The position numbers and the translations under genes are program-made. From an uncultured Acetobacteraceae bacterium (GTDB taxonomy: Bacteria; Pseudomonadota; Alphaproteobacteria; Acetobacterales; Acetobacteraceae): a DNA stretch of 64,000 nt. Position 1 is the first letter of the stretch; each line of letters opens with the position of its first letter. The notes below the pieces were generated by a model. It worked only from the letters and a program-made list of their open reading frames with translations, was not told where the DNA came from and did not search any database. Positions 14,172 through 18,580 of the stretch are shown piece by piece. The stretch covers positions 1 through 64,000 of the forward strand of contig CALMVI010000073.1 in the NCBI GenBank assembly GCA_937873095.1. The letters run 5' to 3'.

Positions 14172-15500
14172 TCATCCTGCGCCGGCCTGGAGCCCTGACG
14201 CGTCGGCCTTCAACACCTCGCCGGCCAGGTACAGGCTGCCGCAGATCAGCACTCGGGAGGGCGGCCCGCCGCTCGCCGAAACCTGCGCCAGCGCACCGGC
14301 GACGTCCGGCCCGGGCCGTGCCACGCCGCCGGACGCCTGGACGATCGCCTCGACCGGCAGGGCCAGATGCTGGCCGGGCTCCTGCACCGCCCAGACCGAT
14401 GCTGCCTGCGGAAGCATCGGCCGCAGGAACTCGGCGGCATCCTTGGACTGCTTCATGCCGACCACCAGGTGGACCGGCCGGTCGGCCCAGCGCCGCAGAT
14501 GCGCCGACAGCGCCACGCCCGCGCCGGGGTTGTGCCCGCCATCGAGGTAAAGCTCGGTCCCCTCCGGCAGCAACCCGGCCAGCCGCCCGTGCAGGCGCTG
14601 CAGCCTGGCCGGCCATTCTGCCGCGGCAACGCCCGCCCACGCGCCGTCCGGCACGGCCAGGCCGGACGCGCGCAGGGCCGCGATCGCCACCCCTGCGTTG
14701 TCCACCTGGTGCGCCCCGGCCAGTCCGGGCAGCGGCAGGTCGAGCGCTCCGTGCCGGTCCCGAAAACCGAGCCGGCCGTCTTGCGCCGACACGTCCCAGT
14801 CGCGGCCGCGCTCCCACAGCGGCGCCCCCGTCTCGGCGGCGCTGGCCCGCAGCACGGCGGCGACCTCGGGCACCTGCGCGCCCGTCGCCACGGGGCGGCC
14901 CGGCTTGATGATCCCTGCCTTCTCCCATGCGATCCGGTCCAGCCGGTCGCCCAGGAACTCCTGGTGGTCCAGCGAGATCGCGGTGATCGCGCAGGCAGCC
15001 GGCCGGGGCACCACGTTGGTGGCGTCGTAGCGCCCGCCCAGCCCCACCTCGACCACGCAGAGATCGGCCGGTGTGCGGGCGAACAGCAGGTAGCCCGCCG
15101 CCGCAAGTGCCTCGAACACCGTGATCGGCTGGCCGGCGTTCACCTGCTCGATCTCGGCCAGCACGTCGGTCAGCGCCTCGTCGGAGACCAGGTCGCCGGC
15201 GATGCGGAACCGCTCGCGCAGATGCACCAGGTGAGGGGAGATGGTGACGTGCACGCGCCACCCCGCCGCCTCGCCGATGGCGCGCAGGAACGCGCAGGTG
15301 CTGCCCTTGCCGTTGGTGCCCGCCACGTGGATCACCGGCGGCAGACGCAACTGCGGGTCGCCGAGCTGGTGCAGCAGCCGCAGCACGCGGTCCAGGCTGA
15401 GGTCGATCAGCTTGGGATACAGCGTGTGCAGCCGCGCAATGATCGCATCGGCCCGGCCGGGCGAAGCGTCCGGCGCCGGGCGGGGCATGTCGCTGCTCAA
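14172..15500 (-). CDS. folC: Bifunctional folylpolyglutamate synthase/dihydrofolate synthase
   Basis: VIHVAGTNGKGSTCAFLRAI, SPHLVHLRERFRI, CVVEVGLGGRYDATNVV, ISLDHQEFLGD, YLDGGHNPGA. Confidence 0.95.
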   Translation of the reverse strand: MSSDMPRPAPDASPGRADAIIARLHTLYPKLIDLSLDRVLRLLHQLGDPQLRLPPVIHVAGTNGKGSTCAFLRAIGEAAGWRVHVTISPHLVHLRERFRIAGDLVSDEALTDVLAEIEQVNAGQPITVFEALAAAGYLLFARTPADLCVVEVGLGGRYDATNVVPRPAACAITAISLDHQEFLGDRLDRIAWEKAGIIKPGRPVATGAQVPEVAAVLRASAAETGAPLWERGRDWDVSAQDGRLGFRDRHGALDLPLPGLAGAHQVDNAGVAIAALRASGLAVPDGAWAGVAAAEWPARLQRLHGRLAGLLPEGTELYLDGGHNPGAGVALSAHLRRWADRPVHLVVGMKQSKDAAEFLRPMLPQAASVWAVQEPGQHLALPVEAIVQASGGVARPGPDVAGALAQVSASGGPPSRVLICGSLYLAGEVLKADASGLQAGAG

Positions 15501-15817
15501 CGAGGAGAGTGACCCCAGCTCAGAACAGTGTCGGAAAGCGCCAACAAGCCTCCCGAAAGACAGAGAACCCCGAAAATACGCAAGCTTCGCATCGAATAGG
15601 CGTGCTTGTTGGAAGTCCCGACCAGTCGCTCCACCATGCTATCCGACCCTATCAGGAGCAGCGCGCCGGCATAAGCAAACCCGATCGCCGAACAAAGATG
15701 ATGATCGAGGGATTTACGTGTTGCGAAGCTTATGATGGCGAACACACCACCCGCGATCAGCAGAATTTCAGCGAGAAGCGATATCGGGTCGAAACGCCTT
15801 CTGCCTGTGACGGGCAT
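15497..15817 (-). CDS. Hypothetical small membrane protein
   Basis: 106 aa with several hydrophobic segments; stop overlaps folC start (ATGA-type overlap). Confidence 0.6.
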   Translation of the reverse strand: MPVTGRRRFDPISLLAEILLIAGGVFAIISFATRKSLDHHLCSAIGFAYAGALLLIGSDSMVERLVGTSNKHAYSMRSLRIFGVLCLSGGLLALSDTVLSWGHSPR

Positions 15818-15837: not shown

Positions 15838-15940
15838 CCTAGAGCATGGTCGGTTCAGGCGGAGTCACCTGAACCGACCAACATGCTCGCTCAATGCAAA
15901 GGTACAGCATGTTCGGTTCAAGTTGAACCCAACACGCTCT
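15838..15940. repeat. Tandem palindromic elements (family C, TAGAGCATG...CATGCTC)
   Basis: GAGCATGGTCGGTTCAGGCGGAGTCACCTGAACCGACCAACATGCTC (15842-15888) and AGCATGTTCGGTTCAAGTTGAACCCAACACGCTCTA (15905-15941). Confidence 0.8.
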
Positions 15941-16868
15941 ACGCTGGCGAAGATGCGGGTTCCGGCGGCGCCTTGGCTGGCTGGCCCGGGTTTTCAGCCG
16001 CCGCCTCTCCGTCGTATGGCTGTAGCAGGCCCAGTAGCCGGGCCAGCGTCTCCCGCATCTCGCTCCGCCGCACCACCATGTCGACGATGCCATGCGCGTG
16101 CAGGTACTCCGCGCGCTGGAAACCCTCCGGCAGCGTCTCGTGCACGGTCTGCTCGATGACGCGCGCGCCGGCAAACCCGATCAGCGCCCCCGGCTCGGCG
16201 ATCTGGATGTCGCCCAGCATGGCAAAGCTCGCGGTGACGCCGCCGGTCGTGGGATCGGTCAGCACCACGACGAAGGGCAGTCGCGCCTCCCGCAGCAGCA
16301 TCGCCGCGATGGTGGTCCGCGGCATCTGCATCAGGCTGACCGCGCCCTCCTGCATGCGCGCCCCGCCCGACGCGGTGAACACCACCAGCGGCGCGCGCTG
16401 CAGCACGGCCAGGCGGGCGGACGCGACCAGGCCTTCGCCCACCGCCGCACCCATCGACCCGCCCATGAACCCGAACTCCATCGCGGCCACGACCGCGCGC
16501 TGCCCGCCGATCGTGCCGTGCGCCACCACCAGCGCGTCCTCCAGCCCGGTCTTCGCGCGCGCCTCCCGCAGCCGCTCGGCGTAGCGCTTCTGGTCGCGGA
16601 ACCCCAGCGGGTCGGCCGGCGCGCGCGGCAGCTCGATGCGGGTGAAACTATCCTCGTCGAACGTCCAGTCCAGCCGCTCCAGCGCCGTCCCGCGCATGTG
16701 GTGCCCGCAATGCTCGCAAACCCTCTGGCTGCGCTCCAGCTCCTTGGTGAAGATCATCTGCTGGCACGCAGGGCATTGCGACCACAGATTGTCCGGCACG
16801 TCAGGCCGATGGCCCAGAAGCGTGCGTATCCTGGGGCGAACGTACTCGGTCAGCCAACTCATGGACAA
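15939..16868 (-). CDS. accD: Acetyl-CoA carboxylase carboxyltransferase subunit beta
   Basis: LWSQCPACQQMIFTKELERSQRVCEHCGHHMR zinc ribbon; DALVVAHGTIGGQRAVVAAMEFGFMGGSMGAAVGEG; FTASGGARMQEGAVSLMQM. Confidence 0.97.
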   Translation of the reverse strand: MSMSWLTEYVRPRIRTLLGHRPDVPDNLWSQCPACQQMIFTKELERSQRVCEHCGHHMRGTALERLDWTFDEDSFTRIELPRAPADPLGFRDQKRYAERLREARAKTGLEDALVVAHGTIGGQRAVVAAMEFGFMGGSMGAAVGEGLVASARLAVLQRAPLVVFTASGGARMQEGAVSLMQMPRTTIAAMLLREARLPFVVVLTDPTTGGVTASFAMLGDIQIAEPGALIGFAGARVIEQTVHETLPEGFQRAEYLHAHGIVDMVVRRSEMRETLARLLGLLQPYDGEAAAENPGQPAKAPPEPASSPA

Positions 16869-16907
16869 ACTCCAACCGTTATCTGGCGGTCGCCAGTCGC
16901 AGCCTGC

Positions 16908-17390
16908 TCAATCTGCGTCGCCGCTCATATACTCGCGCTTATAATCGACAACGCTGAAACCCAACGACGATGCAGTATCCGCAAGTACACTGTCAACAGT
17001 CACAAGTGTCGGCCGCGTCCCAGCTAAATCCAAACTGCAAACATGCAGCAAGACCGAGTCTGCCAGCCCAAGTTGGCGAAACTCCAGTCTTTGGCAGGCG
17101 ATCAGGCTTGCTATCGGCAGTTCCACGACGGTTTCCACGAAAACTTGGAATCGCGCCAGTATGAGACGATGTGCCTGCCCGACCACCTGTCTTATAAGGT
17201 TCGATGTTTCGGACAGTACATGTGGGACAGTGATGATGTCGTCGAACTGGCTCAGCAGCTCTCCAAGCACATCGAAATCGTCCTCTGTGTATTTCTGAAG
17301 CCTTCTATGCATGCGAATGTAATCGCGAGATGCCGAGCCGACAATCAACAAGATAGTCAGGTTCGTATCAACGATGACAGCGCCCATCAT
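16908..17390 (-). CDS. PIN-domain-like protein (putative RNase)
   Basis: Conserved acidic PIN pattern: VIVDTN, LSETSN, GLADSV, LVTVDSVLA. Confidence 0.7.
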   Translation of the reverse strand: MMGAVIVDTNLTILLIVGSASRDYIRMHRRLQKYTEDDFDVLGELLSQFDDIITVPHVLSETSNLIRQVVGQAHRLILARFQVFVETVVELPIASLIACQRLEFRQLGLADSVLLHVCSLDLAGTRPTLVTVDSVLADTASSLGFSVVDYKREYMSGDAD

Positions 17391-17683
17391 TCCACGACAT
17401 CTGCGCTCGCCCGGCGCTTCATCGAGAGAACGCTGCCGTCATCTGCGACGGTCACTACCTTATACGATCGCTTCAGCGACGAAACACCGCCAAGACTCTC
17501 GAGAACCTCTTGTGCTCGCGTTCTAGGTGTGTTCCATGGGCGAGAGAAGGCCAGAGTGATTGCCCAGCCGCCGGTAGAGGGCTCGCGTTCGACCTCTTCC
17601 AGCCCAAGATTCGTTACGCCTTCGTCAGCATAGACGTCAAGCACGTATGTCTTGGCCTTAGCAATCGCCTCTTTCATGTCCAT
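17387..17683 (-). CDS. Small conserved-looking protein, co-translated partner of the PIN protein
   Basis: MDMKEAIAKAKTYVLDVYADEGVTNLGLEEVEREPSTGGWAITLAFSRPW...RSYKVVTVADDGSVLSMKRR; 4-nt overlap with the PIN gene. Confidence 0.7.
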   Translation of the reverse strand: MDMKEAIAKAKTYVLDVYADEGVTNLGLEEVEREPSTGGWAITLAFSRPWNTPRTRAQEVLESLGGVSSLKRSYKVVTVADDGSVLSMKRRASADVVE

Positions 17684-18580
17684 TCAACTCTCCAGTACAG
17701 GACCGTCCAAACAGAAACGTTCATCGCCAATGCCGTCAGATACCTTGGTCGGCGCTGGCCTTCGAACGGCCCGTACCGCCTCGGCCAGCCCGCGCACCTG
17801 GTCCAGCACGCGGCGCACCGTGTCCGGACCCGCGCGACCCTGCGCGTCCAGCGACGCGGCCAGCGTGTCGATCAGCGCGGACGCAACCACGGCCGCGTCG
17901 CCCGCGCGCACGGCGGCCGCGGCCTGCGCGGGGGAGCGCACCCCAAAGCCGATGGCGACCGGCAGGTCGGTCACCGCCCTGATGCGCGGGATCGCCAGGG
18001 CCAGCTCGTCCACCGACGCCGTCCGCGTCCCGGTCACCCCGGTGATGCTGACGTAATAGACGAAGCCGCTGCAGCCCCGCAGCACGGTCGGCAGCCTTGC
18101 GTCGTCGGTGGTCGGCGCCACCAGGCGGACGAAATCGATCCCGTGCTCGGCGGCGTGGCCCGACAGCAGGCCCGCCTCCTCGGTCGGCAGGTCCACCACG
18201 ATCAGGCCGTCCACCCCGGCGCTCGCCGCATCCAGGCAGAACCGCGCCGGATCGTAGGCCAGGATCGGGTTCAGGTAGCCCATCAGCACGATCGGCGTCT
18301 CGGCGTCCTCGGCGCGGAACTCCTGCACCATCCCCAGAACGCGGCTCAGCGACGCGCCGGCCAGCAAGCCCCTGCGGCCTGCCGCCTGGATGGTCGGGCC
18401 GTCGGCCATCGGGTCGGTGAACGGCATGCCGATCTCGATCAGGTCGGCCCCCGCGCCCGGCATGCCGTGCAGAATCGCCATGCTGGTGGCGGGATCGGGG
18501 TCGTAGGCTTCGAGGAAGGGGATCAGCGCCCCACGCCCCTCGGCCCGCAGACGGTCAAACCTTTGCGCAATACGGCTCAT
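17684..18580 (-). CDS. trpA: Tryptophan synthase alpha subunit
   Basis: ALIPFLEAYDPDP, DLIEIGMPFTDPMADGPTIQAAGRRGL, ETPIVLMGYLNPIL, GFVYYVSITGVTGTR, PVAIGFGVRSPAQ. Confidence 0.96.
   Translation of the reverse strand: MSRIAQRFDRLRAEGRGALIPFLEAYDPDPATSMAILHGMPGAGADLIEIGMPFTDPMADGPTIQAAGRRGLLAGASLSRVLGMVQEFRAEDAETPIVLMGYLNPILAYDPARFCLDAASAGVDGLIVVDLPTEEAGLLSGHAAEHGIDFVRLVAPTTDDARLPTVLRGCSGFVYYVSITGVTGTRTASVDELALAIPRIRAVTDLPVAIGFGVRSPAQAAAAVRAGDAAVVASALIDTLAASLDAQGRAGPDTVRRVLDQVRGLAEAVRAVRRPAPTKVSDGIGDERFCLDGPVLES

What the first reader, a model, noticed from the sequence alone, without database searches (positions are those of the whole stretch)
16908..17683. PIN-domain RNase + small partner module inserted between trpA and accD
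The order on the minus strand is trpA, 98-aa protein, PIN protein, accD, small membrane protein, folC. In many Alphaproteobacteria trpA, accD and folC are adjacent. The two extra genes overlap by 4 nt and are less GC-rich. The 98-aa gene starts 1 nt past the trpA stop. Layout resembles a toxin-antitoxin or regulatory RNase pair driven by a housekeeping operon, but the small protein does not look like a known antitoxin family (it has a W.ITLAFSRPW...RSYKVV motif).
Basis: partly seen in the sequence, partly recalled or inferred. Interest (0 to 1): 0.65.

Follow-up and report, generated by a model that had tools for sequence, protein, structure and literature searches.

The report
Unnamed PIN nuclease two-gene module
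Between two housekeeping genes of an acetic-acid-bacteria relative sits a foreign pair of overlapping genes, a probable RNA-cutting PIN enzyme and a small partner protein; the same pair recurs, nearly always together, in at least eleven bacterial phyla and looks like an unrecognised toxin-antitoxin family whose antitoxin is of a new type, but no activity has been tested.

Summary
The 98-aa and 160-aa genes overlap by ATGA, abut trpA directly, and form the lowest-GC stretch of their length in the window. Congeners lack the roughly 0.9-kb segment between trpA and accD. The pair is a real, widespread module: the same genome has a second, diverged copy (thiE/bioF), and one genome scan gave 107 relatives of the small protein. 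Of 92 loci found through the small gene, 79 carry an intact PIN gene immediately downstream. All 20 loci found through the PIN gene and inspected have the small gene upstream. The PIN protein keeps all four catalytic acids in all 76 aligned members and folds like VapC-type PIN proteins, although Pfam, NCBIfam, PHROGs and PADLOC miss the window's copy. The small protein matches nothing in those libraries; its confident model has a cystatin-like topology with no DNA-binding domain, unlike known PIN antitoxins. In several loci the PIN gene is broken or deleted while the small gene is intact. Best reading: a type II toxin-antitoxin-like module with a new antitoxin family, moved horizontally into core operons and, in cyanobacterial plasmids, into a BREX-related defence locus. 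Toxicity, RNase activity and complex formation are untested.

The parts
17387..17683 (-). 98-aa partner protein (putative antitoxin), motif GLEE...W.(V/I)T.GFSRPW...R.YK
   Evidence: ORF; 75-76 homologues aligned, A10, E29, W40, T43 invariant; AlphaFold model pLDDT 87.1, a-b-b-(a)-b-b; no family hit
16908..17390 (-). 160-aa PIN-domain nuclease (putative toxin)
   Evidence: ORF; D8, E61, D111, D133 and E90 invariant in 76 homologues; homologue's fold matches PIN proteins PAE2754, PAE0151, VapC20; PF01850 hits 7 of 76 members weakly
17387..17390 (-). ATGA overlap of the two genes (translational coupling)
   Evidence: sequence; overlap or near-abutment conserved in nearly all homologous pairs
17684..17765 (-). 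3' end of trpA (about 27 codons) with no homology to trpA of relatives; runs in frame into TGA|ATG of the small gene; upstream part of the inserted segment
   Evidence: blastn to L100, L101, L102 stops here; L101 TrpA ends about 20 aa earlier
16864..17765 (.). segment without counterpart between trpA and accD in congeners (inserted segment)

Best explanation
A horizontally mobile, type II toxin-antitoxin-like operon. The first gene encodes a ~95-aa protein of cystatin-like topology that binds and restrains the second product, a single-domain PIN RNase which, when free, would cut an RNA needed for translation and arrest growth. Translational coupling (ATGA) makes the partner before or with the nuclease. 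In this genome the module landed between trpA and accD, so that it is probably read with that operon, and trpA's reading frame now ends at its start codon. Shown: existence, pairing, coupling, insertion, conserved PIN active site, partner fold by prediction. Inferred: inhibition, toxicity, RNA target, transcription from the host operon.
For: Second diverged pair in the same genome at an unrelated site. Small-first loci: 79 of 92 have an intact PIN gene at once downstream. PIN-first loci: all 14 in 13 family genomes, two further genomic ones and four plasmid ones have the small gene upstream. Gaps -20 to +7 nt almost throughout. All four PIN acids invariant; PIN fold. Broken or deleted PIN genes next to intact partner genes (L020, L036, L042, L045, L083, L089) and partner-only loci (L054, L060, L077, L094) whose proteins keep the invariant residues; no PIN of the family at all in the genomes of L054, L060, L080, L094. 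Distances of the two families correlate (r 0.58; best of 1000 permutations 0.22). Patchy distribution: 6/200, 5/385, 3/399 genomes. Foreign GC and empty sites.
Against: The partner has no recognisable DNA-binding domain, which most PIN antitoxins have, so autoregulation is not evident. Usually one copy per genome, unlike VapBC expansions. The excess of partner-only over PIN-only loci rests on 20 PIN-first loci and is only suggestive. No complex could be modelled reliably (fused model pTM 0.57, 7 sequences).
Confidence: 0.6

Rival explanations
1. The small protein is a positive partner: a substrate-recognition or dimerisation subunit of a two-subunit RNase that processes cellular RNA, i.e. a conditional RNA-processing enzyme and not a toxin-antitoxin pair.
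For: Nearly obligate pairing, one copy per genome, strongly conserved charged and aromatic residues E29, E30, W40, R48, W50, R72 in the partner, preference for housekeeping neighbourhoods.
Against: Partner kept intact where PIN is broken or lost, including genomes with no PIN of the family; very patchy distribution among close relatives; low GC and recent insertion.
Confidence: 0.2
2. The pair is primarily an anti-phage module: the partner senses infection and releases or activates the PIN RNase for abortive infection; the housekeeping sites are only landing places.
For: On Nostoc, Allocoleopsis and Leptolyngbya plasmids the pair lies beside DUF499 and (three of four) directly before a DUF1156 methylase; DUF1156 methylases and DUF499 ATPases are core parts of type-1 BREX-related systems (PMC12839542), a paper that also lists PIN RNases as less common backup effectors; the L062 pair follows an EruA-like NACHT antiphage gene (NF058535, E 3.8e-284, score 946 under the cut-off of 1000).
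Against: Most named upstream neighbours are core metabolic or translation genes, no defence enrichment there; no phage or viral-contig copies; PADLOC has no model for either protein.
Confidence: 0.15
3. A decaying chance insertion without function in this genome.
For: Low GC; function not tested.
Against: Both frames open, all catalytic PIN residues and the invariant partner residues kept in the window's copy (G45, nearly invariant, is A here), tight coupling conserved, homologues in 11 phyla.
Confidence: 0.05

Closest known systems
VapBC toxin-antitoxin systems (PIN toxin with RHH, AbrB or Phd-type antitoxin)
   Same: single-domain PIN protein with four invariant acids; small partner gene first, overlapping; patchy, mobile distribution; PIN fold near PAE2754/PAE0151/VapC20
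   Different: partner matches no known VapB family and is predicted cystatin-like without a DNA-binding domain; PIN sequence too divergent for Pfam PIN in 69 of 76 members
Predicted PIN partners of Makarova et al. 2009 (COG2442/DUF433, COG2880, COG1753, truncated MerR, UPF0175, COG2856; PMC2701414)
   Same: found by the same logic: small gene in conserved two-gene operon with a PIN gene
   Different: those with stated folds are DNA-binding (3-helical, AbrB, RHH, MerR); none described in the passages read has the GLEE/W.T.GFSRPW family or its fold. The comparison is by description, not by sequence
Type-1 BREX-related (BR) loci with DUF499 ATPase and DUF1156 methylase (PMC12839542)
   Same: cyanobacterial plasmid copies of the pair lie inside such loci
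   Different: the window copy and most others have no such genes beside them
Designed cystatin-fold proteins (4r80, 5kph) as nearest folds of the partner
   Same: helix packed on a four-stranded antiparallel sheet; Foldseek probability 0.92-0.94
   Different: E-values 0.4-0.7, no natural homologue, no functional inference

Membership tests
[quoted passage not shown]
   D8, E61, D111, D133 invariant in 76 members; PIN fold of the homologue L002
VapBC | antitoxin of the RHH, AbrB, Phd or other DNA-binding VapB families | tested here: not met
   no Pfam, NCBIfam, PHROG or usable PADLOC match for the window protein; Pfam on 76 homologues gives one stray SoxD hit; predicted a-b-b-(a)-b-b, cystatin-like
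VapBC | Pfam PIN (PF01850) membership of the toxin | tested here: inconclusive
   window protein no hit; 7 of 76 homologues at E<=0.01, best 1.5e-4
Type II toxin-antitoxin (general) | two small co-directional genes, overlapping or nearly so, recurring as a pair in many genomes | tested here: met
Type II toxin-antitoxin (general) | patchy distribution and horizontal movement | tested here: met
   insertion and empty sites; the window pair's nearest kin are in other genera, not the second copy in its own genome; the tree alone does not prove transfer
Type II toxin-antitoxin (general) | toxin arrests growth and the partner neutralises it by binding | not testable with these tools
   needs expression and binding experiments
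Type II toxin-antitoxin (general) | autoregulation of the operon by the antitoxin or complex | not tested
   no DNA-binding domain predicted; no operator search across loci was made
Type-1 BREX-related defence system | DUF499 ATPase and DUF1156 methylase beside the pair | tested here: not met
   window neighbours are trpA and accD; met only in cyanobacterial plasmid loci

The most novel reading that the evidence does not exclude
A widespread, so far unnamed toxin-antitoxin family in which a cystatin-like protein, not a DNA-binding one, inhibits a PIN RNase, possibly as an infection sensor, with expression borrowed from the housekeeping operon or defence locus into which the module inserts in place of its own autoregulated promoter.
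Probability: 0.35. Interest if true: 0.75.

Novelty: new variant of a known kind. Interest (0 to 1): 0.55.

Why it matters
It adds a partner family to the PIN network that the libraries searched do not contain, in at least eleven phyla, so many genomes carry an unannotated nuclease pair. If the partner is an antitoxin without a DNA-binding domain, it would show PIN control without the usual autoregulation, and the recurrent placement inside essential operons (rbfA/truB, trpA/accD, fba/rpe) would be a testable way of borrowing expression and escaping loss. The BREX-related and EruA-linked copies make an anti-phage role directly testable.

Tried and rejected
Pfam, NCBIfam, PHROGs and PADLOC scans of both proteins: no usable hit. 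PDB by sequence: only VapC26 at E 0.005 with the 7-row PIN profile, lost with the 76-row profile; nothing for the partner. First genome scan query too diverse, replaced by a 4-row alignment. Viral contigs and phages: no copy (one query each, so weak). Joint alignment of read-through pairs with single proteins misaligned the PIN rows and was dropped. The read-through model of in-frame pairs (stop read as G) has too few sequences for an interface; used only for the PIN fold. Upstream leader homology between the window and its nearest relative L019: none beyond the start codon, so no shared promoter or operator was found. Promoter and terminator scan of the interval: no promoter-like site, terminator at chance. 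Defence-island origin as a general rule: rejected, named upstream genes are mostly core genes. Papers: no description of this pair found; the PIN classification of Matelska et al. 2017 is not held, so prior notice there cannot be excluded.

Full report
Observation. The small gene's ATG follows the trpA TGA with no base between. trpA and accD are confirmed by Pfam; neither extra protein has a Pfam, NCBIfam, PHROG or usable PADLOC match. The pair is the GC minimum of the 64-kb window for its length (53.6% against 67.9%; GC3 about 60% against 88-90% for trpA and accD).

Insertion. accD-centred loci from relatives show the state without the pair: in several family members trpA and accD overlap by ATGA or lie close together; congener G940 has a short spacer, and congener G939 has a different insert of about 0.4 kb that could encode a membrane protein. 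DNA homology with three relatives ends at 17766 inside trpA and resumes at 16863 before accD. So about 0.9 kb came in, and the last ~27 codons of trpA are made of it; the trpA frame ends exactly at the start codon of the small gene.

A second copy and relatives. The same genome (Acetobacteraceae-like, inferred from its nearest named relatives) carries a second pair on another contig, between genes that read as thiE and bioF, 47% and 36% identical. In a tree of 76 concatenated pairs the window pair groups with an uncultured Rhodopila and a Roseiarcus pair (SH-aLRT 96), not with its in-genome copy, so the two were probably acquired separately. Searches with the small protein found it in 6 of 200 genomes of the order, 5 of 385 of the class and 3 of 399 of the phylum, and a scan of species genomes gave 107 relatives, in Pseudomonadota, Chloroflexota, Thermodesulfobacteriota, Latescibacterota, Nitrospirota, Gemmatimonadota, Cyanobacteriota, Chlorobiota and others.

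Pairing. Of 12 loci from whole-genome searches all have the PIN gene next. Of 80 scan loci, 67 have an intact PIN gene immediately downstream. Of the 13 others, six retain a PIN gene that is truncated, internally deleted or frameshifted (L020, L036, L042, L045, L083, L089), four have no PIN trace (L054, L060, L077, L094), and three near-identical Latescibacterota loci (L080, L085, L086) have no PIN; in L080 the next gene resembles, by eye, a minimal nucleotidyltransferase. The partner proteins at these loci keep the invariant residues. A PIN-first search of 250 family genomes gave 14 PIN genes, all with the small gene upstream; two more from other genomes and four on cyanobacterial plasmids also have it. 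A fifth plasmid PIN hit (Kovacikia) was not inspected. Partner-only loci thus exist and PIN-only loci were not seen, as expected if the PIN protein needs its partner; the PIN-first sample is small, so this is suggestive only. A few loci of the two sets are the same species and are counted once each per search. Gaps are -20 to +7 nt except in a few divergent pairs. Distances of the two families correlate (r 0.58, permutations at most 0.22), though shared ancestry contributes to that.

The proteins. In 76 PIN homologues D8, E61, D111 and D133, the PIN quartet, and E90 are invariant. Pfam PIN hits only 7 of 76 weakly. The PIN part of a modelled read-through pair (in-genome copy L002, stop read as glycine) matches PAE2754, PAE0151, VapC20 and other PIN structures with probability near 1.0. 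The partner is modelled with pLDDT 87, pTM 0.76: helix, two strands, a poorly determined loop and short helix, two strands. No solved structure is significant; the most probable matches are designed cystatin-fold proteins. So cystatin-like topology is likely and a DNA-binding antitoxin fold unlikely.

Genome contexts. Upstream genes with a Pfam name are mostly core genes: RbfA, GatB, succinyl-CoA ligase, Lgt, class II aldolase, TrpA, a PLP-dependent enzyme that reads as threonine synthase, leucyl aminopeptidase, SRP54, ribosomal L1 (NCBIfam for some). rbfA/truB is a recurrent site in the family (L011, L136, L138, L139, L140). A minority lies in defence contexts: on Nostoc and Allocoleopsis plasmids the pair sits directly before a DUF1156 methylase with DUF499 genes near, on a Leptolyngbya plasmid beside DUF499, which recalls the type-1 BREX-related arrangement (PMC12839542), and in L062 after an EruA-like NACHT gene.

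Interpretation. The anatomy fits a type II toxin-antitoxin module: partner first, coupled translation, a small toxin-type RNase, patchy spread, and loss of the nuclease with retention of the partner. Makarova et al. [quoted passage not shown] the partners with stated folds listed there are DNA-binding proteins, which this one does not resemble. It is therefore not filed as VapBC but as working like one. Main rivals are a two-subunit processing RNase and a dedicated anti-phage module. All functional steps (toxicity, target, inhibition, co-transcription) are inference.

Noticed in passing
window 15497-15817 (-): A 106-aa putative membrane protein between accD and folC is also low in GC (55%, GC3 60%), matches no family, occurs once in the genome, and is not seen in the accD-folC interval of the two congeners: a second possible insertion in the same operon.
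   Followed up: partly
window 15845-15929: Two related inverted repeats after accD (TGGTCGGTTCAGG...CCTGAACCGACCA and CATGTTCGGTTCAAGTTGAACC), not expected by chance; possible terminator or repeat element.
   Followed up: partly
L100 (congener G939), trpA-accD junction: The same junction holds a different ~0.4-kb insert that could encode a membrane protein, so this junction may be a repeated insertion site.
   Followed up: no
L010, L011, L136, L138, L139, L140: The pair lies after rbfA, mostly before truB, in several members of the family: a recurrent or old insertion site in an essential operon.
   Followed up: partly
L143, L144, L145, L146: Cyanobacterial plasmids carry a divergent form of the pair beside DUF499 and mostly before DUF1156 (BREX-related locus), with HTH/ImmA and ThiF/multiubiquitin genes near in Nostoc.
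   Followed up: partly
L062 837-4901 (+): EruA-like NACHT antiphage gene 99 nt upstream of the pair; a near-identical arrangement in L076 from another phylum label may be transfer or mis-binning.
   Followed up: partly
L080 5279-5626 (+): Partner gene without PIN overlaps a gene that looks like a minimal nucleotidyltransferase; possible partner switch or chance neighbour.
   Followed up: no
L064 and L137: Near-identical pairs in a contig labelled Solirubrobacterales and in a genome of the window's own family; probably a mis-binned contig.
   Followed up: no
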